A DNA stretch of 64,000 bases from Rhodothermus marinus. Its GTDB lineage: Bacteria; Bacteroidota; Rhodothermia; Rhodothermales; Rhodothermaceae. The number at the start of each line of letters is the position of its first letter. The stretch's first letter is position 1. Positions 2,372-13,758 of this stretch are shown here, piece after piece. Below the pieces are notes generated by a model. It saw only the letters and a list, made by a program, of their open reading frames with translations. It did not search any database and was not told the origin of the DNA. Made by a program: the position numbers and the translations under genes. Where the stretch lies: the NCBI RefSeq assembly GCF_009936275.1, contig NZ_AP019797.1:3207890-3271889 (forward strand). The letters are read 5' to 3'.

Positions 2372-3019
2372 ATGAGTTTCACCTCGCCTTCGGTCGAAGC
2401 CCTTGTCGAGCAGCTCATGCGGCTGCCCACCGTCGGGCGCAAAACGGCCCAGCGGCTGGCGGCCTACATTCTGAAAATGCCCCGTGAAGAAGTGGAGGCG
2501 CTGGCACAGGCTCTGCTGGCCGTCAAAGAACGCGTGCGCCAGTGCGCTATCTGCTTCAACGTGACCGACGAGGAAGTCTGTGCCATCTGCCGCTCGCCCC
2601 GCCGGGACCACTCCACCATCTGCGTGGTCGAAGAACCCAGCGACGTGCTGGCCCTGGAGCGCACCGGAGAGTACCGGGGCGTCTACCACGTACTGGGCGG
2701 CGTCATCTCGCCGCTGGACGGTATCGGCCCGGACGACCTGCGCATCCGTGAACTCGTGGCCCGCGTGGCGCCCACCAACGGCGACCCCGAGCGGGCCGCG
2801 CTCTATCCGGAAGGTCGTATTCCGCGTGTTCAGGAAGTCATCCTGGCGCTGAACCCCAACGTCGAGGGCGACACGACCGCTTATTATCTGGCGCAGCTGC
2901 TCAAACCGCTGGGCGTGCGCGTCACACGTATTGCCCGCGGCCTGCCCATCGGAGGCGACTTGGAGTATGCCGACGAAGCTACGCTCTCCCGTGCGCTGGA
3001 GGGACGCCTGGCCCTTTAA
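2372..3019 (+). CDS. recR: Recombination mediator protein RecR
   Basis: RecR works with RecF/RecO to load RecA on single-stranded gaps. The 215-residue product has an N-terminal helix-hairpin-helix region ([13 protein letters not shown], residues 18-30), a four-cysteine zinc finger (C58, C61, C70, C73) and a Toprim domain beginning at [14 protein letters not shown], with the G-rich [13 protein letters not shown] segment. The ATG at 2372 is chosen because an upstream in-frame ATG at 2351 would overlap ybaB and add seven non-conserved residues. The gene starts five bases after ybaB ends. Confidence 0.95.
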
Positions 3020-3060
3020 GAAAGGCTCTGTAAAGCCTTGTCGAACTGCACGATTCGGTC

Positions 3061-3091
3061 TTAAAAATGAGCGATTCCGGCCGTATCTTTG
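3061..3091 (+). promoter_or_regulatory. putative Bacteroidota-type promoter for the saccharopine-dehydrogenase-like gene
   Basis: TATCTTTG at 3084-3091 matches the Bacteroidota -7 consensus TAnnTTTG exactly. A TTA triplet at 3061-3063, 20 bases upstream, could be a weak -33 element. The gene start is at 3150, leaving a leader of about 45-50 bases. Predicted from sequence only. Confidence 0.4.
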
Positions 3092-3149
3092 AGCGATCCC
3101 GGATCGTCTTGCCCCGCTTTCCCTGCACGCCATCTGCCTGACGACGACC

Positions 3150-4391
3150 ATGCGCATAACGATCATTGGAGCCGGTGCCATTGGTTCGGCCATCGCTTCG
3201 TTTCTGGTACGTCAGCCTGAAGTAACCCAGGTGCAGGTCTGCGACGCTCGCGCCCGCAACCTGCAGGAACTGCACGATCGGCTGCAGACCAGCCGGCTGC
3301 GCTCCTTCCAGATCGACGCGCGCGATCACGGCGTGCTGGAACCGATCCTGCAGGGAAGCCAGGTGGTCATCAGTGCCGCCCCGCCGCAGCTCAACCCGAC
3401 CCTGGCCCGCCTCTGCCTGGAGCTGGGCGTCAACTTCTGCGACATGGGCGGCAACGACCAGATCGTGCGTAAGGAACTGGACCTGCATGAAGAGGCTGTC
3501 AAACGCGCCGTCTGGATCGTTCCCAACTGCGGCTTGGCCCCGGGTCTGGTGAACATCCTCTGCCTGCACGGCATCGACCAGTTCGACGAAGTCGAAGCGG
3601 CCTATCTGCGCGTGGGCGACGTGCCGCTGGATCCACATCCGTTCAATTTCCGCATTTCCTGGTCGGCGGAAAAGGTGATCGAGGACTACACGAATCCGGT
3701 GCAACTCATTCGTGAGGGCCAGCTGGAGACCGTCGAGCCGTTGACCGGCATGGAGCGGATCCGCTTCGGGGAGCCCTTCGGGGAAATGGAGGCCTTCTAC
3801 ACGGCGGGCGGTCTTTCGACGCTGGCCGAGCAGCTGGCCGGACGCATTCAGGTACTCGACTACAAAAGCGTCCGCTGGCCCTGTCATGCCAGCCAGATGC
3901 GCTTTGTGCTGGGACTGGGCTTTGGCGAGCCGCGTTCGATCGACGTGCGCACGCACCTGACCTACCGCGACGTGCTGGTGCGACGCATGCGCCAGCGGCT
4001 GGGCGGCCACTATGAAGACGCCGTGCTGCTGCGCATCGCCATTCACGGGCGCAAAAACGGCCAGCCCTGCACGCTCCTTTACGAAATGGTCGATCGCTAC
4101 GATCAGGAGCAGCAGATCAGCGCCATGCGCCGCTGCACGGCCATTCCCACGGCCCTGGTGGCGCTCATGATCGCCTCCGGCGAGGTCAAAGGCGGTGGCG
4201 CGCTACCTCCCGAACAGGTGGTACCGCGCGATCGCTTCTACCAGCGTCTCATCGAACACGGCCTGCCGATCGCCCACCGCTGGTACGAGGGCTACGTGGA
4301 CGTCACGCATCCGGACCCCGAGCGCGCCCTTGCCGAACCGCCTGCCTCGGACAAAAAGAGCCGGAAGCGGCAGCCGGCCTCCAGCCGATAG
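3150..4391 (+). CDS. Saccharopine dehydrogenase family oxidoreductase
   Basis: NAD(P)-dependent oxidoreductase of 413 residues. The N-terminus is a Rossmann fold with glycine motif IIGAGAIGSAIASFL, followed by the family segment VVISAAPPQLNPTLARLCLELGV and the strongly conserved CDMGGND and NCGLAPGLVNIL blocks. The C-terminal half is the saccharopine-dehydrogenase C-terminal domain. Family members include saccharopine reductase, lysine 6-dehydrogenase and carboxynorspermidine synthase, and the sequence alone does not settle the substrate. No lysine or polyamine gene is adjacent. The stop codon directly abuts the stop of the convergent SDR gene, with no intervening base. Confidence 0.85.
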   Translation: MRITIIGAGAIGSAIASFLVRQPEVTQVQVCDARARNLQELHDRLQTSRLRSFQIDARDHGVLEPILQGSQVVISAAPPQLNPTLARLCLELGVNFCDMGGNDQIVRKELDLHEEAVKRAVWIVPNCGLAPGLVNILCLHGIDQFDEVEAAYLRVGDVPLDPHPFNFRISWSAEKVIEDYTNPVQLIREGQLETVEPLTGMERIRFGEPFGEMEAFYTAGGLSTLAEQLAGRIQVLDYKSVRWPCHASQMRFVLGLGFGEPRSIDVRTHLTYRDVLVRRMRQRLGGHYEDAVLLRIAIHGRKNGQPCTLLYEMVDRYDQEQQISAMRRCTAIPTALVALMIASGEVKGGGALPPEQVVPRDRFYQRLIEHGLPIAHRWYEGYVDVTHPDPERALAEPPASDKKSRKRQPASSR

Positions 4392-5087
4392 CTAAAAACC
4401 GCGACCGTAGGCCCGGATCACCATCCCGTTAAGCGCGGCACCAGCCGGCGAGCACAGGTAGACGCACAGCTCGGCCAGTTCGGCGGCCGTCACGCCGGAC
4501 CCCTCGCTGCCTTCATCGTACCGGATCACCGAGGGGGCAACGACATGGGCGGTGATGCCCTGCGCCACCAGCTCGCCGCCGACGGCCTCGACCAGCCGTA
4601 CCAGCGCCCCCTTGGCGGCCGAGTAAGCGGCCTGGCGGGCACGACCACGGTCGGCGCCCTGCATCGACGCAAATGCGATCAGCCGTCCGCCGGAGCGCCC
4701 GCGCATCAGACGGGCTGCTTCGCGGAAGCACAGGAACGTGGAGGTCAGATTCGCATCCAGCATCGCCCGCCAGTCGTCCAGCGTCATTTCGAGCAACGGG
4801 CGCTCGTCCCACAATCCGGCTGCGTGCACCAGCACGTCCACGTAGCCAAAGCGGTCCCAGATTTTGCCGAAGCAGGCGGCTACCTGCGCCTCGTCGGCCA
4901 GATCGGCATGAAAAACCGCACCTTCGGCACCTTCCGGAAGCTGAAGGTGCCGGGCCTGCTCGGCCGTGCGCACCACCGCCGCCAGGCGGGATCCTTCCTG
5001 CGCGAAACGCCGAAGCAATTGCTGTCCCAGCCGCCCACCGGCGCCGGTAACCACCACGACTTTATGCGCCAGGGTGTGCGTTTCCAT
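4392..5087 (-). CDS. SDR family NAD(P)-dependent oxidoreductase
   Basis: Short-chain dehydrogenase of 231 residues. Visible motifs are the cofactor-binding TGAGGRLGQ near the N-terminus, the catalytic Ser in ASMQGA and the YSAAKGAL Tyr/Lys pair. The start at 5087 (METHTLAHK) is preferred over an in-frame start 33 bases upstream because the Rossmann strand follows it at the usual distance. It lies 147 bases downstream of the GT4 gene in the same direction, so it may be the last gene of the GH130/GT4 operon or have its own promoter. Substrate unknown; a sugar or keto-acyl substrate is possible. Confidence 0.85.
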   Translation of the reverse strand: METHTLAHKVVVVTGAGGRLGQQLLRRFAQEGSRLAAVVRTAEQARHLQLPEGAEGAVFHADLADEAQVAACFGKIWDRFGYVDVLVHAAGLWDERPLLEMTLDDWRAMLDANLTSTFLCFREAARLMRGRSGGRLIAFASMQGADRGRARQAAYSAAKGALVRLVEAVGGELVAQGITAHVVAPSVIRYDEGSEGSGVTAAELAELCVYLCSPAGAALNGMVIRAYGRGF

Positions 5088-5234
5088 AGTACCTGTCTGT
5101 CTGGTTGAAGCTGCACGCAAGCGTGCATTCGGCCGCGCTGTACGTGTAGAAGCGCCTGTGGCGCCACTTCGCCGTATGGCTTTGCTACATAGGCCGAACG
5201 CACGCCGACAAGATAGGCGTCGCCAGGAAATGGC

Positions 5235-6266
5235 TCAAGCGGCCGAACGGGCCCGGTGCCGACGCAGCACTTCTTCATAGACGCGCAGGTAGTCGTCGAC
5301 CATGCGCTCGCGGCTGAAGCGGCGCTCCACGTAGGCGCGGATTTTCGCACGGTCGAGCTGACGCAGCCGGGGCAATGCGGCCACGGCTTCCTCCACCGTC
5401 TGCACCAGCACGCCGGTTTCGCCGTCCCGTATGATCTCGGGCATCGAGCCGCGCGGACGGGCCACGACGGGGGTGCCGCAGGCCATCGCTTCGACCACAC
5501 TCAACCCGAACGGCTCGTCGAAGTTGATCAGGTGCAGCAGCGCGTAGGCACCACCCAGCAGCCGATCTCGATCGGCCGGTCCCACCGACCCCAGGTACTG
5601 AATCTGCCGGCCGTCGATGAACGGCGCCACCTCCTGCTCGAAGTAGGCCCGATCCTGAATGATGCCGGCCATCTTCAGCGGCATGCCACTCCGACGGGCC
5701 ACCTCGATCGCCTCACGCGCCCCTTTGTCGGGATGCATGCGGCCAAAAAAGAGCAGATAGTCGCCCGGCTCGGTGCGAAGCGTGAACGACTCCAGATCGA
5801 TCCCGTGATACACGGTAGCCACGTAATCCAGGTCGGGATGCCGGTCGGCATTGCTGATCGAGACGTAGTAGGTGCGGCGGTTGTACTTGCGATAGACCGG
5901 CAGAATGCGCTCCGACGAAAAGCCGTGGATCGTGGTCAGCACCGGCGTACGCACCAGGCCGCTGTAGCTCAGCGGTAGAAAGTCGAAGTGGTTGTGGATG
6001 AGATCGAATTCCCCGGCGCGCTCGAACACCTCGCTGATGTGCAGACACTCCCAGACCTTCGGGTCCAGCGAAGGATCCTCTTCGTAGGGGCGCGGGCATA
6101 CGGCAATGAGCCGGGCGCGCGTCTGGGAGTCGGCCGTGGCAAACAGTGTCACGTCGACGCCTCGATCGACCAGCCCCTCGGTCAGCAGCCAGACGACCCG
6201 CTCCCAGGGGCCATAGTGACGGGGCGGCACGCGCCAGGCGATGGGGGCCAGCATGGCGATCCGCAT
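5235..6266 (-). CDS. Glycosyltransferase family 4
   Basis: GT-B fold glycosyltransferase of 343 residues. The N-terminal domain carries a glycine-poor acceptor loop (RHYGPWERVV) and FDLIHNHFDF; the C-terminal nucleotide-sugar domain has LLFFGRMHPDKGAREAI and the GT4 signature EPFGLSVVEAMACGTPVVA, containing the E-x7-E pair. No membrane segment is seen, so the enzyme is cytoplasmic. It lies 3 bases after the single-domain GH130 gene and must be co-transcribed with it. Inference: the GT4 enzyme builds the glycan that the GH130 partners trim or phosphorolyse. Donor and acceptor cannot be told from sequence. Confidence 0.9.
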   Translation of the reverse strand: MRIAMLAPIAWRVPPRHYGPWERVVWLLTEGLVDRGVDVTLFATADSQTRARLIAVCPRPYEEDPSLDPKVWECLHISEVFERAGEFDLIHNHFDFLPLSYSGLVRTPVLTTIHGFSSERILPVYRKYNRRTYYVSISNADRHPDLDYVATVYHGIDLESFTLRTEPGDYLLFFGRMHPDKGAREAIEVARRSGMPLKMAGIIQDRAYFEQEVAPFIDGRQIQYLGSVGPADRDRLLGGAYALLHLINFDEPFGLSVVEAMACGTPVVARPRGSMPEIIRDGETGVLVQTVEEAVAALPRLRQLDRAKIRAYVERRFSRERMVDDYLRVYEEVLRRHRARSAA

Positions 6267-6269
6267 GGC

Positions 6270-7259
6270 TCAGCCTCGGGCCTGTCCGTCGTAGTGACCG
6301 TTCAACAGCCAGTCGAGCAGCTCGCTCAGGCGCGCTTCGGCGACGGCCACGCAGGTATCGGCCGCGCCGTAGTAGAGACGCAGCGTGTCGCCGTCCAGCA
6401 CGTAGCCACAGGGAAACACCACGTTGGGCACGTCGCCGATGCGTTCGTACGGAGCCCGCGGGCCCAGGATCCATCCGGGCGCCCGTCGGATGACGCGCGT
6501 GGGGTTTTCCAGGTCCAGCAGCGCCATGCCCACCCGGTAGATGTCGCCGGCCACCGTGGTGCGCACGCCGTGGTAGATGAGCAGCCAGCCCTCGGGCGTT
6601 TCGATCGGCGGCGGTCCGGCCCCGATGCGCACGTGGTCCCACCAGATGCCCGGCCGCGGCCGCAGCACCACGCGCGGACCGCTCCAGTGCCGCAGGTCCG
6701 GCGACCGGCTCAGCCAGATGGCCGGATGCGTCTCGCGCCGCGTGCTGGAGGTCCGGTGCAGCAGCACCCAGTAGCCCCCGATTTTACGAGGAAAGAGCAT
6801 GCCGTTTTTGTCTTCCGGCGGCATGAGCAGGCCGCGCCGCTCGAAGGTGCGGAAGTCTTCGGTCAGCGCCAGCGCAATGGCCGGTCCTTCCTCCGAAAAC
6901 GCCGTGTAGGTGACCGCATAGCACCCCATCTCCTCCAGCCACACGATGCGCGGATCTTCGATGCCCCAGGATTCTTCGGGCCAGTGCTCCGGATCGGGCA
7001 CCAGCGTCGGCTCGGGATCGATCGTCCAGTCGGTCAGTCCGTTGGGACTCCGGGCCACGGTCAGATGCGACACGCCCCGGTGGTCTTCCACGCGCACCAG
7101 CAGCAGCGTTTCGCCCGTGTCCAGACGAACGGCCGCCGGATTGAAGACGGAGTTGCACGGATAGGGCCAGTCGTCGGCCGTCAGAATCGGGTTCCCCTCG
7201 TAACGTCGAAACAACTCGCCCACCTGCTGGGGCATCGGAAGCACTTCGTAGTCGCGCAT
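6270..7259 (-). CDS. GH130 family glycoside phosphorylase/hydrolase (single domain)
   Basis: A 329-residue five-bladed beta-propeller of the GH130 family, which acts on beta-mannosides, most often by phosphorolysis. The catalytic Asp lies in IEDPRIVWL, and downstream are LLHRTSSTRR and IGAGPPPIETPEGWLLIYHGV-type segments (split here between residues about 195 and 225). No signal peptide, so it is cytoplasmic, as expected of a phosphorylase. It sits between the double GH130 gene (9 bases away) and the GT4 gene (3 bases away). Its propeller closely resembles the first domain of the neighbouring fusion, suggesting an old duplication. Phosphorylase versus hydrolase activity cannot be decided here. 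Confidence 0.88.
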   Translation of the reverse strand: MRDYEVLPMPQQVGELFRRYEGNPILTADDWPYPCNSVFNPAAVRLDTGETLLLVRVEDHRGVSHLTVARSPNGLTDWTIDPEPTLVPDPEHWPEESWGIEDPRIVWLEEMGCYAVTYTAFSEEGPAIALALTEDFRTFERRGLLMPPEDKNGMLFPRKIGGYWVLLHRTSSTRRETHPAIWLSRSPDLRHWSGPRVVLRPRPGIWWDHVRIGAGPPPIETPEGWLLIYHGVRTTVAGDIYRVGMALLDLENPTRVIRRAPGWILGPRAPYERIGDVPNVVFPCGYVLDGDTLRLYYGAADTCVAVAEARLSELLDWLLNGHYDGQARG

Positions 7260-7268
7260 CGTCTCGCT

Positions 7269-9443
7269 TTACAATGCTTTGGTCGTTGCGACTTCAGGTT
7301 CTTCGGCGGCCCGTCGCTCCAGGGCTGCGATCAGCTCGCTCATCGGAATCCGTGCCCCAAAAATGCGGCTGTCGGCCGCCGCATACGGGATGATCAGATC
7401 ACCACGCCATACATAATTTGCACAGGCAAACAGCACATTATCCACACCCAGTTCCGGGTCGCCCACCTTTTCGATGTCGCCGCGCGGCCGCATGAGCGGC
7501 TCCAGGCGGGCTGCGACGGGATCGGGTCGGTTGAAATCCAGCAGCGCCGCCGCCAGATCGTACTCCCGGTGCCCGTCCCAGTCCATGTGTCCCTGATGGT
7601 AGATCATCAGGAAACGCCGGTTGCCCAGCGCGATGGGCGGGCCGCCTGCTCCGATCCAGGAAAGCGCAAACTCCCGGTAGCGGTAGCTGGCCATCAGCAG
7701 GCCCCGACTGTGGAAGGGCCCCTCGGGCCGGTCGGCTTCGGCCAGATGGATGGCCATGGGATGCCGCCCGTAGATGGGGCGGTGCAGCAGCAGCCATTTG
7801 CCATCGACGGGCTCCGGCAGCAGCGCCGCATTTTTGTTGTCCACGTCGTTCACGTCGCCGGGGATCGGGCCGTGCAGTTCCCAGTGCACGAAGTCCTGCG
7901 TGGTGGCCAGGCAGATGTGCACGCGCCCGATGAACGACGGAAAGCGGGAGCGTTCGGTGGTGTAGCCCGTGTAAAACAGGTAGTAGGTATCGCCGATCTT
8001 CGTGCAGCGGGCATCTTCGGCACCAAGATCGTGGAAGACGGCGTCGGGTCGAATGACAGGCTCCGGCCAGCGCCGCACCAGTTCCAGCGTGGGCGTCAGC
8101 ACGGCCAGCCCCAGCGAAGAGGGCGCGTGCCCGGCCGGGCTTCCTTTCGCCCCCTGGGCCCGGTAGATCATCACACACGCGCCGCCGGCCCGGCGGAGCC
8201 GCTCGCGCTCCGGCCCGGTAAGTTGCCAGGCGTCCATGAGCCGCTCCAGCTCCTCGCCAGCCTCCACGAGCACGGCGGCCGGATTCAGCACCACGCGCGA
8301 CTCCCAGGGATGCTGCGGGTCCGGCTCGAGGACGGGTCGTCCGCCATGCAGACGCTCGACCTTGACGGGTGGCGGCGTCTCGATCGTGCGCATGGCCCGG
8401 CCCCGGTCGCTGGGCAACATGTACACCCGGGGCATCGTCCAGCTATGCCGCTGCTCTTCCAGCACGAAATCGACCACGTCCCGCAACGATGCCACCGCAT
8501 GGCCGATCACTTTGTCGGCTGCGCCGTAGTACACGTGCAGCTGGCCATCGATCACCACGGCCCCCTCTGGAAACACGACGTTGGGGACGTCCCCCTCGCG
8601 CTCGAAGGGCAGCTCGGGCTCCAGGATCGGCACGCGAGCCCGGGCGATCGTCCGCTGTGGATCGTCCAGGTCCAGCAGCGCCACCCCGGCCCGGTAGGTG
8701 TAGGTTTCGTCCACCCCGTGGTAGATCAAGAGCCACCCCTCGGGGGTCTCGATGGGCGGCGGTCCGGCCCCGATCTTTTTGCGCTCCCAGCGCCGGGCCG
8801 GACGGAGCGCCACATGCTCGTCCAGGTCGGCCAGGTGCTCGGCCCAGCGCACAGCCGATCGGTGCAGCAGCTCGTCCCAGTCGTCGAAGTAGATGATCTG
8901 AATGTCCGGTTCGATGCGGTGCAGCAGCGCCAGTTTGCCCCGGATGCGACGCGGAAAGAGCGCGGCGTCTTTGTCGCGCACAGGCGGACCGATCACGCCG
9001 TGTTTTTCGACCTGCACGAAGTCGGTCGTCGAGGCCAGCCCGATGCGGACGCCATCGCCGGGACCGAAAGCCGGCGTACTGAGCACCGTGTGTACGATCC
9101 AGTAGCGTCCTTCCAGGAACGTGATGCGCGGATCTTCGAGTCCGTAGCGGTCGAAGTCCTCGCCCGGCGCAAGCAGCGGCGACTCGCGCCAGGTGAAGTG
9201 CACGCCGTCGGTGCTCGTGGCGTAGCCGAGCGAGGAGATGTAGGGCTCGAAGCCATAAGCTGGCTCGCCGGGTCCCGAATTCGGCAGCGGAAAGCGCCGA
9301 TAGCCGGCCGGAACGGCCCGGAAGACAAGATGCACGCGCTCTCCGTCGTACCAGGCGCCCGGATTGAATACGGCGCCCGAGGCCCACGCCAGCTCGGCGC
9401 GGGGCGTCAGCACCGGAACGGCTGTCCGTCGAAACAAGGCCAT
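7269..9443 (-). CDS. Tandem double-domain GH130 protein
   Basis: A 724-residue protein made of two complete GH130 propellers, about twice the family's normal length. Domain A (about 1-325) has LEDPRITFL, LLHRIEPDIQ, the GAGPPPIETPEGWLL block and VPNVVFPEG. Domain B (about 370-715) has AEDARCTKI, LLLHRPIYGRH, IGAGGPPIALGN and VDNVLFACANYV, and carries an extra helical insertion (about 40 residues, rich in E and R) after its NPAAVLV strand. Both domains keep the E-D-[PA]-R catalytic segment. No signal peptide. First gene of the operon, start ATG at 9443 without a clear Shine-Dalgarno; a hairpin lies just upstream. Domain B is much more diverged from the single GH130 than domain A is, so the two halves may have different substrates. 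Confidence 0.88.
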   Translation of the reverse strand: MALFRRTAVPVLTPRAELAWASGAVFNPGAWYDGERVHLVFRAVPAGYRRFPLPNSGPGEPAYGFEPYISSLGYATSTDGVHFTWRESPLLAPGEDFDRYGLEDPRITFLEGRYWIVHTVLSTPAFGPGDGVRIGLASTTDFVQVEKHGVIGPPVRDKDAALFPRRIRGKLALLHRIEPDIQIIYFDDWDELLHRSAVRWAEHLADLDEHVALRPARRWERKKIGAGPPPIETPEGWLLIYHGVDETYTYRAGVALLDLDDPQRTIARARVPILEPELPFEREGDVPNVVFPEGAVVIDGQLHVYYGAADKVIGHAVASLRDVVDFVLEEQRHSWTMPRVYMLPSDRGRAMRTIETPPPVKVERLHGGRPVLEPDPQHPWESRVVLNPAAVLVEAGEELERLMDAWQLTGPERERLRRAGGACVMIYRAQGAKGSPAGHAPSSLGLAVLTPTLELVRRWPEPVIRPDAVFHDLGAEDARCTKIGDTYYLFYTGYTTERSRFPSFIGRVHICLATTQDFVHWELHGPIPGDVNDVDNKNAALLPEPVDGKWLLLHRPIYGRHPMAIHLAEADRPEGPFHSRGLLMASYRYREFALSWIGAGGPPIALGNRRFLMIYHQGHMDWDGHREYDLAAALLDFNRPDPVAARLEPLMRPRGDIEKVGDPELGVDNVLFACANYVWRGDLIIPYAAADSRIFGARIPMSELIAALERRAAEEPEVATTKAL

Positions 9444-9461
9444 GGTTCTTGCTGAAGGCTT

Positions 9462-9478
9462 TTCGCAAAGCCTGCGAA
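9462..9478. promoter_or_regulatory. hairpin/dyad in the leader of the GH130 operon
   Basis: TTCGCA and TGCGAA form a perfect 6-base inverted repeat with a 5-base spacer, ending 18 bases before the start codon of the double GH130 gene. Its place in the leader is compatible with an operator or an mRNA hairpin close to the ribosome site. Seen in sequence; function is inference. Confidence 0.35.
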
Positions 9479-9549
9479 TCGCCTACCGCCCGGCTCGTGT
9501 TCCAAGGAGTCGCGACCGGGCTGCTCCTTTTTACAGGAAGGTTGCGACG

Positions 9550-9587
9550 AAAAAATGCCGGGGTCCGGCACGAAGCCGAACCCCGGC
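9550..9587 (-). terminator. intrinsic terminator of the GH3 gene
   Basis: On the minus strand a near-perfect 13-base stem (9575-9587 pairing with 9557-9569, one mismatch) with a 5-base loop is followed by a T-rich tract (9550-9556). It lies downstream of the GH3 stop codon and separates that gene from the GH130 operon. Confidence 0.85.
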
Positions 9588-9615
9588 CCAGGGACCCCGC
9601 AGACGTCCGGGGTAT

Positions 9616-11463
9616 TCAGTAGGTCAGGCCATAGCCGAAGGGAAACAGCGGATCATAGTCTTCGTCGCCCACGTTGATGGGGATCTGATCCATCGAGCGC
9701 GGCCAGGAGAACGGCAGCTTACCGGTCGGAGCGTAGTCGCCAAAGAGCACGTCGGCCACGCCATCGCCTTCGCTGCCCGGAAGCCAGGCCGCGATGAAGG
9801 CGTCGGCCATTTCGAGCACGTCGTTGATGATCATCGGGCGCCCGGAGATCAGGATCACCACCACGGGTACGCCGGCTTCTTTCAGGCGCCGCACCACGGC
9901 CACGTCGTCCGGATCGAGCGACAAATCGGAGCGATCGCCCAGAAACTCGGCGTAGGGCCGCTCGCCGATCACCGCGATGGCCACGTCGGCGCCGGCCGCA
10001 CCGGAGCCATCTTCCGAGTAGGTCACCTCGGTACCGGGTGCCACCGCCTTCCGGATGGCTTCCAGGATCGTGGTGCCTTCGGTGATGTCGCCGCTTCCGC
10101 CCTGCCAGTCGATCGTCCAGCCACCCGCCTGATAGCCCAGGTTGTCGGCGTGCAGCCCGGCCACATGGATACGGCCGAGGTCTTTGGCCAGCGGCAACGT
10201 CTGGTTTTCATTCTTCAGGAGCACCAGCGATTTGCGCACCGCCTCGCGGGCCACGGCCCGGTGCTCAGCCGAACCGAACTTCGCCCACAGACTCCGATCG
10301 GCGAACACGTGCTCGGGGCCATCCATCAGCCCCATGGCGAATTTGACGCGCAGGATGCGCAGCACGGCGTCGTCGATGCGCTCCATGGGCACCCGCCCTT
10401 CTTCGACCAGCTCTTTCAGAAGCTGGAAAAACTCGCGGTAGCGAGTGGGCACCATGGCCATGTCGATGCCCGCATTGATGGAAATCTCGATGGCCGTCTT
10501 GTAGTCGGGATGGACCTGATCGATGGCATTGTAGTCGGAAATCACGATGCCCTCAAAGCCCAGCTCGCCCTTCAGCACGTCGGTGAGCATGTACTTGTGG
10601 CCGGTCATCTTGACGCCGTTCCAGCTGCTGTAGGACACCATGATCGAGCCCACGCCGGCCTGGATGGCGTCGATGTAGGGCCGCACATGAATGCGGCGGA
10701 ACGTGGCCTCGTCCAGCCGCACATCGCCCTGATCCAGCAGCGCCCCCTGCGGCCCACCGGTGCCGAAGGCCGTACCGCCGTCGCCGGCAAAGTGCTTGGC
10801 CGAGGCCAGCACGGCCAGCGGGTTGTTCAGCCCGCCATTCTGCAGGCCGCGCACGGCCGCCGCACCCAGCGTGGCCACCAGTTCCGGATCTTCCGAGAAG
10901 CTCTCGTAAGTGCGGCCCCAGCGTTCGTCCCGCGCCACGGCAATGCACGGCGCGAAATTCCAGTGAATACCGGTGGCCCGCATTTCGATGGCCGTAATGC
11001 GATAGACCCGCTCCACCAGGTCCGGGTCGCGCGTGGCTCCCAGCCCGATGTGGTGCGGAAAAACCACGGCTCCCTCGACGTTGCTGTGGCCGTGCACGGC
11101 GTCGATGCCGTAGAGCAGCGGAATGCCCAACCGCGTGCGCAGCGCAATGGCCTGCAGGCTGTCGTACACCTCGGTCCAGGCCTCCAGGCTGTTACCGTCG
11201 GCCGGATCCGAATTGCCGCCGCTCAGAATGGAGCCCAGGTGGTAGGTCTGGATGTCGTAGGGATCCTGGAGAAAGGCCTGTTCGGCCTGAATCATTTGAC
11301 CGATTTTCTCCTCCAGGGTCATCTGTGCCAGCAGGGCGCGGGCCTGCTCGTCGTAACTGGAGAGCGGAGGAAACGCGGCCGTCGAAGGGGGTTGCTGCTC
11401 CGCTTTCTGACAGCCGGCCGCTACGAGTCCAAGCATAAGGCAGCCGATTACCAGGTGCTTCAT
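9616..11463 (-). CDS. Glycoside hydrolase family 3 beta-glucosidase-type lipoprotein
   Basis: Exo-acting GH3 enzyme of 615 residues that would release sugars from the non-reducing end of beta-glucans or xylan-derived chains. The N-terminus is a lipoprotein signal ([18 protein letters not shown]), placing the enzyme outside the inner membrane. The catalytic nucleophile is D310 in [10 protein letters not shown], and KHFAGDGGT and [12 protein letters not shown] are classic GH3 blocks. The protein ends at FPFGYGLTY, a normal end for GH3 enzymes without a fibronectin domain. The start at 11463 is chosen for its lipobox. It is followed by a strong terminator, so it is a single-gene unit. Confidence 0.93.
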
Positions 11464-11622
11464 GGCTTCCGGAAATTGGGGTGGTTTCAGGGCTTCAGTC
11501 CAGCCTTCCACCCACACAAAGACCTTCAGACAGGCTGGGTTCACCAGGCTTGATTCAAGTCAAATTACTTTACAAAAAAGCCGACACAAACGCAACCCCT
11601 GCGTCCCTACCCTTCCGACCGG

Positions 11623-11907
11623 CTACGAGCACCGGCATCGTGGTTCAGCTTTCCGGGCGGGCATCTCCGGAAGGGACAGGCCACGGACGCGCATTTTTTC
11701 CAGCAGCGCCCGCCACTGTGCCGCCAACCAGGCCGGATCCTCTTCATCCGGAGCCGCTACAGCATCCCAGAGCTGCTGCAGCGACCGAAACAGCGCCCGG
11801 TGCTGTGCGTCGGCCTCCAGCCATTGTTCGACGCGCTGCTGCACGGCTTCCGAAGCCTCGCCGGCCAGGTAATCCACCAGATTTTGCCAGCTAACCGTAG
11901 GCGCCAC
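11623..11907 (-). pseudogene. truncated FecR-type anti-sigma factor (N-terminal domain only)
   Basis: A 94-residue product resembling only the cytoplasmic N-terminal domain of FecR-like anti-sigma factors: residues 6-30 (NLVDYLAGEASEAVQQRVEQW) and the following RALFRSLQQLWDAV helix. Full FecR proteins are over 300 residues, with a transmembrane helix and a periplasmic FecR domain; neither is present here and no other frame downstream supplies them. It directly follows the ECF sigma gene (44 bases), the usual place for FecR. Either a decayed gene or a retained soluble sigma-binding domain. The expected TonB receptor is missing; the next gene is the GH3 lipoprotein. Confidence 0.6.
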
Positions 11908-11951
11908 CGACGGCTTTTTCTGGATTAAGACGCCGAACAGCGGCTACAACC

Positions 11952-12566
11952 CTATTGGGCCAGAAAAGATGCCAGACAGGCCCGGAGGTATTTGACGGCT
12001 TCGGTCAGCTGGTTACTCACCGTCTTGGGCGAGACCCCCATAATCCGGGCAATTTCTGCATAGGTGAAGCCGCGTTCGCGATGCAACAGAAAGGTCAACC
12101 GCCGACGCTCCGGAAGGGAGGCGATGGCCTGCTCCAGAGCTTGCCGAAACTCTTCGGCCTGCAGGCGCTGGAGACCGTCGGGATCGCCACACGTTCGATG
12201 TACGGGGAGTTGCAGCCCATCGACCTGCCATCGACGCCGCAGTTGCTGTCGGCGCCGAAAGTTGAATGCCTCGTTGCGCACGGCCTGATAGAGGTACAGC
12301 CGGAGCGAGTGCGTGGGTTGCCAGCGCTGGCGCCGCTCCCAGATGCGCAGAAAGACCTCCTGGACCACCTCATACGCCGCCTCTTCGTCGCCCAGCACAC
12401 CCTGCGCAAAGCGACAGAGCCGACCGTAGTAGCACCGAAACAGTTCGGCATAGGCTTCGCCGTCTCCCTGTCGGATGCGCCGGATCCAGTCGTACTCCTG
12501 GGCCGACAGCGAACCGACGCGCGTGTCCGACGATGTCGAGGTTTGCCCGGGCTGCACCAAGGCCAT
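11952..12566 (-). CDS. ECF RNA polymerase sigma factor (FecI-like)
   Basis: Alternative sigma factor of 204 residues. Region 2 is visible as DGEAYAELFRCYYGRLCRFAQGVLGDEEAAYEVVQEVFLRIW (quoted in two parts: DGEAYAELFRCYYGRL and EEAAYEVVQEVFLRIW), and region 4 as LPERRRLTFLLHRERGFTYAEIA followed by the helix-turn-helix GVSPKTVSNQL. The start at 12566 is preferred over one 42 bases upstream because region 2 then begins at a typical distance. This group in Bacteroidota usually controls nutrient-uptake loci through FecR and a TonB receptor; here its partner is truncated. Confidence 0.9.
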   Translation of the reverse strand: MALVQPGQTSTSSDTRVGSLSAQEYDWIRRIRQGDGEAYAELFRCYYGRLCRFAQGVLGDEEAAYEVVQEVFLRIWERRQRWQPTHSLRLYLYQAVRNEAFNFRRRQQLRRRWQVDGLQLPVHRTCGDPDGLQRLQAEEFRQALEQAIASLPERRRLTFLLHRERGFTYAEIARIMGVSPKTVSNQLTEAVKYLRACLASFLAQ

Positions 12567-12599
12567 GCGCTGAAAGTTGAACCGATTTATGACCGACAG

Positions 12600-12780
12600 A
12601 TTATCCACTCAGCTTTCTTTCACCGGGATTTCAACATATAATCTCATATTGGCAAAATCAATCCCCTTTTTCGTCTCCATTCTTTTGATTTTCTATATTT
12701 CATTTATTGAATCGATTCATTTATTGCAAATTTTATCTTTCTTCACAATATACAATCCTCTGCCGTCTCTTCGCCCTCTT
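12600..12780. other. AT-rich intergenic segment
   Basis: The spacer between the divergent ECF sigma and RNA methyltransferase genes (12567-12843) is strikingly AT-rich at 12600-12780 in an otherwise GC-rich window. It is 277 bases long and should hold the promoters of both genes. Several T-rich runs are present but no unambiguous -7/-33 pair stands out. An in-frame upstream extension of the methyltransferase across this stretch encodes a low-complexity hydrophobic peptide and is not considered coding. Confidence 0.5.
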
Positions 12781-12843
12781 CCGAGAACAAAGCGCGCGCA
12801 CGCCTGTTTGCGTGCACCCCGTGCATCTGTTCAACAGACGACC

Positions 12844-13758
12844 ATGGAGCTGCCCACCGCGTTCATCCGATATCGGCCCATTGTGGACGACTGGGAAGCG
12901 TTTGTGGCGGCGCTCCGGCGGCCGCTGCCGGTGTGCGTGTGGACCAACACGCTGCGCACCACGCCCGAACAGGTGAAAGCCGCGCTGGAGGCCGAAGGGC
13001 TGAAGCCGGAGCCGCTTGCCTGGCGCTCTGATGCTTTTCGGCTGCCGCCCGACAGCCAGCCCGGCAACCGCTTGGCCTACGTGCTGGGACACTACCACGT
13101 GCAGGAAGAGGTCTCGCTGCTGCCGGTGCCGCTGCTCGACCCGCAACCCGGCGAGCGTGTGCTGGACCTCTGCGCGGCCCCCGGTGGCAAAACGGCCCAG
13201 ATCGCCGTCCGCATGCAGAACCGGGGTACGGTCGTGGCCAACGACCGCAACCCGCTGCGCCTGCGTCAGCTCTCGGGCACGATCGAGCGCCTGGGGCTGC
13301 TGAACGTCACTACCACACTGCACGACGGGGCCGACTATCCTCTGGAGAGCGGTCCGTTCGATCGCGTGCTGGTCGATGTGCCCTGTTCCTGCGAGGGGAA
13401 TTTCCGGAAGGATCAGCAGGTAGCCGATGCGTTTGCCGGGGCACCGGAACTCTGCGGGTTGCAGACGGCGCTACTACACCGGGCCGTGACGCTGTGCCAC
13501 CCGGGCGGCCGCATCGTCTACGCTACATGCACGTTCGCCCCTGAAGAGAACGAACTGGTTGTCGATACCGTACTCCAGCGCTGGGGCGAAGCCCTGCGAC
13601 TATTGCCGGCCCGTCTCGAAGGCTTCCGGGGTGCGCCGGGCCTCACCGAATGGAACGGCCGGCGCCTGCATCCTTCGCTGGAGCTGGCGCTGCGCGTCTG
13701 GCCGCACCTGAACGACACGGGTGGTTTCTTTGTAGCCGTACTCGAACGACAGGCCTGA
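12844..13758 (+). CDS. RsmB/NOL1/NOP2/sun family m5C RNA methyltransferase
   Basis: S-adenosylmethionine-dependent RNA cytosine-5 methyltransferase (304 aa) acting on rRNA or tRNA. Motif I is LDLCAAPGGKTAQIA; motif IV DVPCSCEGNFRK and motif VI ATCTFAPEENE carry the two cysteines that mark m5C enzymes. The ATG at 12844 opens the conserved N-terminal region; upstream in-frame sequence is AT-rich intergenic DNA. The product lacks the C-terminal PUA-like domain of RsmF-type enzymes, which appears to be supplied by the next gene, starting one base after this stop codon in another frame. Confidence 0.92.
   Translation: MELPTAFIRYRPIVDDWEAFVAALRRPLPVCVWTNTLRTTPEQVKAALEAEGLKPEPLAWRSDAFRLPPDSQPGNRLAYVLGHYHVQEEVSLLPVPLLDPQPGERVLDLCAAPGGKTAQIAVRMQNRGTVVANDRNPLRLRQLSGTIERLGLLNVTTTLHDGADYPLESGPFDRVLVDVPCSCEGNFRKDQQVADAFAGAPELCGLQTALLHRAVTLCHPGGRIVYATCTFAPEENELVVDTVLQRWGEALRLLPARLEGFRGAPGLTEWNGRRLHPSLELALRVWPHLNDTGGFFVAVLERQA

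What the first reader, a model, noticed from the sequence alone, without database searches (positions are those of the whole stretch)
7269..9443. Tandem GH130 fusion with a diverged second domain and an inserted helix
Two complete propellers in one chain are unusual for GH130. Both keep the E-D-[PA]-R segment. Domain A is nearly co-linear with the separate GH130 gene downstream, while domain B differs in its active-site border (GGPPIALGN in place of GPPPIETPEG) and has a charged insertion of about 40 residues. This suggests that domain B has changed specificity or is regulatory.
Basis: seen in the sequence. Interest (0 to 1): 0.55.

Follow-up and report, generated by a model that had tools for sequence, protein, structure and literature searches.

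The report
Fused pair of mannoside-cleaving enzyme domains
One protein joins two sugar-cutting domains that related bacteria make as two neighbouring proteins beside a sugar importer; the odd second half looks like a working enzyme of a little-studied kind, not a spare part.

Summary
In detail: 7269-9443 (-) is one 724-aa chain with two complete GH130 domains. A two-domain GH130 gene in this cluster is already mentioned in print for Rhodothermus marinus (PMC6987092).

Tools add three points. (1) In what was searched the fusion is restricted: the window's genome and its six congeners, two genomes of one other genus, and one contig. In other Rhodothermia the same A and B domains are separate, nearly always adjacent genes, mostly at the end of an ABC sugar-importer operon; the window's genome keeps such an unfused paralog pair. 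(2) Domain B is a distinct GH130 clade. It keeps the catalytic Asp, the mannose-binding residues and the beta-1,2 marker Lys in 28 of 28 sequences, but has Trp in all 28 where seven reference chains have Lys/Arg. (3) In one congener domain A has lost its catalytic residues (17 of 78 otherwise invariant positions changed) while B is untouched (0 of 81). That argues against B being regulatory or decayed.

Best reading: a bifunctional cytosolic pair of beta-1,2-mannoside enzymes with complementary roles, comparable to Teth514_1788/1789. A looks like a phosphorylase; B's exact reaction is open. The "inserted helix" is a two-helix feature of the whole B family. I found no activity data for either domain.

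The parts
7269..9443 (-). Fused gene AB: two GH130 domains, 724 aa (PMC6987092 predicts that the genes around the GH3 gene are intracellular)
   Evidence: orthologs; PMC6987092 section read
8442..9443 (-). Domain A (chain residues 1-334), GH130 nearest to Teth514_1788/1789 beta-1,2-mannoside phosphorylases; key residues N27, D104, K158, R176, K223, H242, D310
8397..8441 (-). Linker between the domains, about chain residues 335-349
   Evidence: inferred from the domain limits; weak resemblance to the linker of genus g25 seen by eye
7272..8396 (-). Domain B (chain residues 350-724), distinct GH130 clade; key residues N387, D477, K537, R555, H616, D691; W596 in place of a Lys/Arg
8181..8264 (-).
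6270..7259 (-). Gene C, separate GH130 protein, 329 aa, 9 bases after AB; sister of the beta-1,4 type (TM1225, RaMP2, Uhgb_MP) but with Lys at the beta-1,2 marker position; absent in congener G001
5235..6266 (-). GT4-type glycosyltransferase, 343 aa, 3 bases after C
4392..5120 (-). Short-chain dehydrogenase downstream, found at the fused locus in all six congeners as well
9616..11544 (-). GH3 gene upstream (Rmar_2616/RmBgl3C ortholog by gene order); not seen at the fused locus of G005, broken into three frames in G006
   Evidence: PMC6987092
9557..9587 (-). Terminator-like hairpin (13 pairs, tail with T6) between the GH3 gene and AB
   Evidence: consensus match only

Best explanation
AB is a bifunctional cytosolic enzyme made by fusing two GH130 enzymes that act on the same imported beta-mannoside. 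Domain A is an exo-acting inverting beta-1,2-mannoside phosphorylase: Asp104 is the proton donor; Lys158, Arg176 and Lys223 hold phosphate and the +1 sugar; products are alpha-mannose 1-phosphate and a shortened chain. Domain B is a second exo-acting beta-mannoside enzyme of a separate GH130 clade, with the same -1 subsite and the same beta-1,2 marker Lys, but with Trp596 replacing one basic residue of the presumed phosphate site. It most likely removes mannose from a different chain length or acceptor than A, as Teth514_1788 and Teth514_1789 divide the work. SHOWN here: fold (B, as a confident model), domain limits, conservation of catalytic residues, pairing of A and B genes in importer operons, decay of A but not B in one congener, absence of the operon's own A and/or B copies in four of the seven genomes of the genus, all of which have AB. 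INFERRED: substrate, direction of reaction, division of labour, that AB serves the importer.
For: Both halves are GH130. The best solved relative of A and of B is Teth514_1788; the model of B (pLDDT 86, pTM 0.88) has Teth514_1788 as top fold match, Z 36.7 over 298 residues. Residues aligned to the mannose-binding Asn28, Asp92 and Asp281 of Teth514_1788 (named in PMC4264767) are kept in 28 of 28 B rows, and in 27 of 28 A rows; the decayed A of G001 loses two of the three. The Lys that marks beta-1,2 specificity (BT3780 Lys199, PMC4599007) aligns with K158 in A and K537 in B and is kept in 28 of 28 rows of each. Of 16 full-length unfused B genes in the class, 15 lie directly after an A gene and one has a single gene between. 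Of these 16 pairs, 12 show a solute-binding protein, two permeases and a conserved 480-aa protein (U480) upstream on the same strand, and so do both fused genes of genus g25; three more pairs lie too near a contig end to show it, and one (G122) shows no importer in 16 kb. U480 occurs in 20 of 244 class genomes and all 20 also have B; B occurs in 23 (Fisher p 2e-26, not corrected for shared ancestry; in four Rhodothermus genomes the only B is the fused one elsewhere). Solute-binding protein, two permeases, U480 and ATPase are present in 7 of 7 Rhodothermus genomes, but the operon's own GH130 copies are both present in G000, G001 and G004, only A' in G002 and G005, and neither in G003 and G006, while AB is in all seven. 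In another phylum (Gemmatirosa plasmid) two adjacent GH130 genes sit beside U480 and the same kind of importer.
Against: W596 replaces a residue that is Lys/Arg in seven of seven reference chains other than the hydrolase, so B may not use phosphate in the usual way, or at all. That this site binds phosphate is my mapping by sequence spacing onto BF0772 K212, recalled and not read in a paper. The fused copy in Rhodothermus is not directly beside the importer but beside C and a GT4 enzyme, which could mean another substrate or a biosynthetic role. A's NCBIfam score for the beta-1,2-mannobiose phosphorylase model (390.6, whole chain) is below that model's cut-off of 450. In G001 A is dead yet the fused gene is still intact, so A's catalysis is dispensable at that locus. 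One B row (L039) has Thr at Y615 and two lack H619. G292 and G242 have B without an A gene beside it, and the truncated G375 case has importer genes but no U480. I saw no activity data for any A or B member.
Confidence: 0.5

Rival explanations
1. Domain B is an active GH130 enzyme but not an ordinary phosphorylase: with Trp596 at the usual Lys/Arg site it transfers mannose to another nucleophile (a sugar acceptor, a larger phosphate such as a nucleotide, or water).
For: W in 28 of 28 B rows, fused or not, including two distant ones; a distinct clade. In a Sphingomonas plasmid copy of the importer cassette the second gene beside GH130 is a DUF1861/GT108 protein, whose Leishmania relatives are titled GDP-Man-dependent mannosyltransferases or mannose phosphorylase.
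Against: B keeps the other two basic residues of the presumed site (K537, R555), has Gly, not Glu, at the column of the hydrolase base Glu268, and its fold is closer to GH130 (Z 36.7) than to GT108 (Z 24.5).
Confidence: 0.27
2. The cluster is biosynthetic: AB and C, with the GT4 enzyme 3 bases after C, build or turn over a beta-mannan or glycoconjugate from alpha-Man1P or GDP-mannose (reverse phosphorolysis).
For: AB, C and GT4 are separated by 9 and 3 bases. No importer gene was found at the two Rhodothermus fused loci searched for it (L086, L115), and in all seven genomes the importer ATPase lies elsewhere. Thermoanaerobacter shows its GH130 genes in a cluster with a GT4 gene and a mannose-1-phosphate guanylyltransferase (PMC4264767, passages).
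Against: Elsewhere A and B lie in importer operons. In Roseithermus strain RA two GH130 genes tagged close to two sugar permeases rise about 4-fold on xylan-supplemented medium and those permeases rise too (PMC7409140, passages), which fits uptake and breakdown; that these are the A and B orthologs is inferred from gene order only.
Confidence: 0.15
3. Domain B is regulatory or a structural remnant.
For: B is diverged and carries an extra two-helix segment.
Against: Catalytic Asp, mannose-binding Asn and Asp, marker Lys, Arg and His are kept in 28 of 28 B rows; in G001 B has 0 of 81 and A 17 of 78 otherwise invariant positions changed (Fisher p 2e-6); unfused B genes stay in importer operons.
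Confidence: 0.05

Closest known systems
Teth514_1788 and Teth514_1789 (GH130, Thermoanaerobacter; 1,2-beta-oligomannan and beta-1,2-mannobiose phosphorylases)
   Same: Two GH130 beta-1,2-mannoside phosphorylases of one organism with different chain-length preference (PMC4264767), consecutive locus tags; nearest solved relatives of A and of B; same -1 subsite residues and marker Lys
   Different: Separate genes, and the two proteins are each other's sisters in my tree (99/98), whereas A and B are two different clades; B has Trp at the basic site and the two-helix segment
R. marinus RmBgl3C (Rmar_2616) cluster, PMC6987092
   Same: Same gene order GH3, two-domain GH130, GH130, GT4 (rfaB), SDR, saccharopine dehydrogenase
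   Different: In the section and passages read, the GH130 genes get one sentence and a figure legend; nothing there on the nature of the second domain, its unfused relatives or the decay of A in a congener
GH130 beta-1,2-mannosidases BT3780 / BACOVA_03624 (GH130_NC)
   Same: Same fold; the catalytic Asp and the beta-1,2 marker Lys align with B
   Different: Those are secreted hydrolases with a Glu pair and without the three basic residues (PMC4599007); B has Gly at the Glu268 column and keeps two basic residues
GT108 / DUF1861 (Leishmania MPT enzymes)
   Same: Five-bladed propeller, some members acting on beta-1,2-mannan (PMC8950772, passages); a bacterial DUF1861 gene stands beside GH130 in a Sphingomonas version of the cassette
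   Different: B has no Pfam DUF1861 match at E up to 1, and its fold match is weaker (Z 24.5 against 36.7)

Membership tests
GH130 (domain B) | Score over Pfam PF04041 cut-off (26 bits) | tested here: met
   92.2 bits alone
GH130 (domain B) | GH130 five-bladed propeller fold | tested here: met
   AlphaFold2 model pLDDT 86; the first 21 rows listed by VIA-align are GH130 enzymes or their sequence relatives, Z 31.8-36.7, the next row is 24.5
GH130 (domain B) | Catalytic Asp and -1 subsite Asn and Asp | tested here: met
   N387, D477, D691 in 28 of 28 rows
GH130 mannoside phosphorylase (domain B) | Three basic residues around phosphate | tested here: inconclusive
   K537 and R555 kept, the third presumed site is W596 in 28 of 28; which three residues bind phosphate is mapped by spacing and recall, not read
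GH130 mannoside phosphorylase (domain A) | Three basic residues around phosphate | tested here: met
   K158, R176, K223 in the window; 28, 27 and 28 of 28 rows, the exception being G001; same mapping caveat
beta-1,2-mannobiose phosphorylase (NCBIfam NF052550) | Score over the curated cut-off (450 bits) | tested here: not met
   390.6 bits for the whole 724-aa chain, best stretch in A
beta-1,2-specific GH130 | Lys aligned with BT3780 Lys199 | tested here: met
   K158 (A) and K537 (B), 28 of 28 rows each; C also has Lys, while TM1225, RaMP2 and Uhgb_MP have Arg
GH130 hydrolase type (BT3780) | Glu227/Glu268 pair | tested here: not met
   At the Glu268 column B has Gly in 28 of 28; Glu227 lies nearest B's R555 by hand, the automatic alignment placed it elsewhere
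GT108 / DUF1861 (domain B) | Pfam PF08950 match | tested here: not met
   not among Pfam matches of B at E up to 1
CAZy GH130 numbered subfamilies | Membership of one of the roughly 16 network-defined subfamilies | not testable with these tools
   PMC10461819 (passages) states they exist; CAZy sequences are not held here
Phosphorylase activity | Phosphate-dependent cleavage giving alpha-Man1P | not testable with these tools
   needs purified protein

The most novel reading that the evidence does not exclude
Domain B founds a new functional type within GH130: a beta-1,2-mannoside enzyme whose phosphate site is rebuilt around an invariant Trp, so that it uses another nucleophile or acceptor. The A+B pair, as two genes or one fused chain, would then be a two-step device that passes an imported beta-1,2-mannoside from one active site to the other, with B rather than A as the indispensable half.
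Probability: 0.17. Interest if true: 0.62.

Novelty: new variant of a known kind. Interest (0 to 1): 0.42.

Why it matters
GH130 enzymes cleave and make beta-mannosidic bonds by way of mannose 1-phosphate. A conserved, mostly importer-linked GH130 clade with a Trp at a site that is basic in all seven reference chains other than the hydrolase is a direct target for finding a new specificity or reaction; no PDB chain closer than about 33% identity turned up for it. The fused form, together with a congener whose A half has died naturally, gives a ready comparison for separating the two roles. It also links a little-known 480-aa family (U480, relative of PDB 7tem) and an ABC importer to GH130 enzymes in three phyla.

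Tried and rejected
Rejected: chance or spurious frame (orthologs in 7 of 7 genomes of the genus). Not favoured: two independent fusions in Rhodothermus and genus g25. In the B tree all fused rows are one side of a branch (90/81) and in the A tree too, but weakly (73/43); one origin is likelier, not shown. Rejected: GT108 filing of B. PF08950 passes its cut-off in 0 of 394 phylum genomes; 7 of 394 have weak matches below it. No Rfam match at gathering score in 3000-13000. Promoter scan: 1 site found, 1.0 expected, none before AB; terminator-like sites 10 found, 4.6 expected.

Led nowhere: AlphaFold2 of the full chain from a single sequence (pLDDT 32), so the mutual arrangement of the two domains is unknown. 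A joint alignment of fused and unfused rows put B rows on A, so B was modelled alone. One scan of viral contigs with exact peptide patterns of A found nothing. Adding generic GH130 genes to the family tree failed because my pattern found none in 18 loci, so that tree has 25 rows, two references in it (Lin0857, Uhgb_MS) being partial. L006 was translated on a wrong strand or frame. dN/dS between congeners is near saturation for G001 and not used as proof of relaxation.

Literature: full-text searches (12 of 65 listed), all in one open-access library. I read PMC6987092 in passages and one section; PMC4599007 in passages and one section; PMC4264767, PMC8950772, PMC7409140 and PMC10461819 in passages. 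Only PMC6987092 mentions this gene cluster in what I read. Absence of a paper on domain B is limited to those searches.

Rows dropped: the B fragment of G375 is in none of the B counts, so 25 of the 26 class B matches were used, plus the L039 contig, G292 and G242 = 28. The A gene of G531 was left out because a run of N splits it (one search shows the same contig). G292 and G242 were left out (26 B rows there).
Full report
WHAT IS THERE. The minus-strand gene at 7269-9443 encodes 724 residues. Pfam finds GH130 twice, and each half passes the curated cut-off alone: A 182.9 bits, B 92.2 bits, cut-off 26. Gene C (6270-7259, GH130), a GT4-type glycosyltransferase (5235-6266) and a short-chain dehydrogenase follow; a GH3 gene precedes. 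Gaps are 9 bases AB to C and 3 bases C to GT4. A 13-pair terminator-like hairpin with a T-rich tail lies between GH3 and AB (9587-9557), so GH3 may not be co-transcribed with AB. Among the six congeners the GH3 gene is not seen at this locus in G005 and is broken into three frames in G006, and C is missing in G001; GT4 and the dehydrogenase are there in all six.

WHO ELSE HAS IT. The window lies in a 3.43-Mb single-contig genome. The neighbour G004 has a contig of 3,261,604 bases, which I recall as the R. marinus DSM 4252 chromosome; a contig of G005 has the same length as a record titled Rhodothermus sp.. The fused gene is in 7 of 7 genomes of the genus (the window's own and six others) at 78-100% identity, and in G036 at 57%; G502, of the same genus as G036, also has it. 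A contig labelled Pimelobacter carries it too (L039), but its rows join genus g25 with 100/100 support in both trees, so that label is probably a binning error. In the class, 23 of 244 genomes have a B-type domain at E up to 1e-40; 9 of these 23 are fused. In a sample of 394 phylum genomes, B-type domains outside the class turned up in G292 and G242; full-length B-type matches score 377-721 bits, other listed GH130 matches under 100. A pattern scan of the named genome collection returned 8 loci.

THE UNFUSED FORM. Elsewhere A and B are separate genes, and the window's own genome has an unfused paralog pair at 410264-412408 of its contig, 63% identical. Of 16 full-length unfused B genes in the class, 15 directly follow an A gene; in Roseithermus one LamG-domain gene lies between. 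Of these 16 pairs, 12 show a sugar-binding protein, two permeases and a 480-residue protein, here called U480, upstream on the same strand; a PorV-like outer-membrane protein and a UgpC-type ATPase often stand in the same stretch. U480 of L106 has no Pfam match at E up to 5 but matches PDB 7tem, titled a putative exported protein YPO2471 (217 bits). U480 is in 20 of 244 class genomes (E up to 1e-30), all 20 of which have B. In genus g25 the fused gene itself sits in this operon, right after U480. Not every B fits: G122 shows no importer within 16 kb, the contigs of G031, G010 and G423 end too near to tell, G375 has importer genes, A and a B fragment but no U480, and G292 and G242 have B without A beside it.

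A TELLING SERIES INSIDE THE GENUS. All seven Rhodothermus genomes have the binding protein, both permeases, U480 and the ATPase. The operon's own GH130 genes are both present in G000, G001 and G004, only A' is there in G002 and G005, and neither in G003 and G006. All seven have AB. The simplest reading is that AB can stand in for the operon's pair; this, and that absence means loss, is inference.

WHICH HALF MATTERS. In G001 the fused gene is intact (724 codons, no stop), but its A domain has changed 17 of 78 positions that are invariant in the other 27 A rows. They include the catalytic Asp (D to E), the Arg of the LHR motif (to His), the His of YH (to Cys) and the -1 subsite Asp (to Asn); its B domain has changed 0 of 81. 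Fisher's exact p is 2e-6; positions are not independent, so this is a guide only. Gene C is also missing there: GT4's start codon lies 8 bases after AB's stop codon, and the genome has no C-like GH130. G001 keeps the unfused pair. So in that lineage A and C are expendable at this locus while B is held.

WHAT B IS. With nine sequences AlphaFold2 gives a confident model of B (pLDDT 86, pTM 0.88). Its best match is Teth514_1788, Z 36.7, rmsd 2.4 over 298 residues, 33% identity; GH130 enzymes and their sequence relatives fill ranks 1-21, then GT108 follows at Z 24.5. In a 25-row tree B is a clade of its own (100/100) on a long stem; A, C and seven references lie on the other side of that branch, with BT3780 as chosen root. 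The branch that unites A, C and those references is not strongly supported (87/72). C is sister to TM1225, RaMP2 and Uhgb_MP (98/94).

THE ACTIVE SITE. Using Asn28, Asp92 and Asp281 of Teth514_1788 (PMC4264767, passages) and Lys199 of BT3780 (PMC4599007, section and passages), the aligned residues in B are N387, D477, D691 and K537, all in 28 of 28 rows. R555 and H616 are also invariant; Y615 is Thr in one row and H619 differs in two. Position 596 is Trp in 28 of 28. At that column A has K223, and the seven references other than BT3780 have Lys (Teth514_1789, TM1225, RaMP2, Uhgb_MP) or Arg (Teth514_1788, Lin0857, Uhgb_MS, the last titled a mannoside synthase); BT3780 has Leu. That this is the K212-like phosphate residue of BF0772 is my mapping by spacing and recall. 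B has Gly at the column of the hydrolase base Glu268. So B looks catalytic, is neither a textbook phosphorylase nor a textbook hydrolase, and its reaction must be measured.

THE INSERT. The two-helix segment (chain residues 394-421) is exactly as long in 28 of 28 B rows, fused and unfused; it belongs to the clade and not to the fusion.

OTHER PHYLA. A Gemmatirosa plasmid has two adjacent GH130 genes, U480, binding protein, permeases and ATPase. A Sphingomonas plasmid has ATPase, LacI regulator, U480 (annotated hypothetical), binding protein, permeases, GH130 and a DUF1861 gene; its DUF1861 protein matches the Leishmania MPT structures (6q50, 177 bits), and 6q50 is listed as GT108. So the cassette can carry two mannoside propellers, the second of varying kind. 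These are the only two plasmid records with U480, not a survey.

EXPRESSION LEAD. In Roseithermus sacchariphilus RA with beechwood xylan, GH130 genes AWN76_014035 and AWN76_014055 rise 4.00- and 3.90-fold, and permeases AWN76_014015 and 014025 rise too (PMC7409140, passages). Gene order suggests these are the A, B and permease orthologs; this was not verified by sequence.

WHAT IS ALREADY IN PRINT. PMC6987092 (section read) describes the same cluster in R. marinus and says that one of the two GH130 genes contains two domains. A full-text search for four phrases such as "tandem GH130" gave no paper. The two-domain gene itself is therefore known; the nature of B, its unfused operon form, the invariant Trp and the dead A domain were not in the passages I read.

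VERDICT. A real, conserved fusion that is known but, in what I could read, unstudied. Best explanation: two complementary beta-1,2-mannoside enzymes in one chain, B being an active member of a GH130 clade for which I found no characterised member. Interest moderate.

Noticed in passing
L086 7567-9738 (genome G001): Fused gene with a catalytically dead A domain and an intact B domain; the neighbouring gene C is missing.
   Followed up: yes
L106 5276-6709, L084 5778-7223, and relatives: U480, a conserved 480-aa protein that looks exported by eye; all 20 class genomes that have it also have domain B (20 of 23 B genomes have it). Related to PDB 7tem (YPO2471); no Pfam family over cut-off in three copies scanned.
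   Followed up: partly
L119 8899-15430 (Sphingomonas plasmid): Importer cassette with U480, GH130 and a DUF1861 gene; DUF1861 matches the GT108 enzymes of Leishmania, so a bacterial GT108 relative stands next to GH130.
   Followed up: partly
L120 5642-13511 (Gemmatirosa plasmid): Two adjacent GH130 genes followed by U480, binding protein, permeases and ATPase, unannotated in the collection.
   Followed up: partly
window 6270-7259: Gene C groups with beta-1,4-mannoside phosphorylases but has Lys, not Arg, at the position said to mark beta-1,2 specificity.
   Followed up: partly
window 9557-9587: Terminator-like hairpin between GH3 and AB, at odds with the published prediction that the GH3 gene is co-transcribed with this cluster.
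   Followed up: partly
L039: Contig labelled Pimelobacter (Actinomycetota) whose GH130 fusion and neighbours match Rhodothermia genus g25; probable mis-binning.
   Followed up: partly
window 5988-9455 (+): 1155-codon antisense open frame over the GH130 genes; most likely a shadow of GC-rich coding sequence.
   Followed up: no
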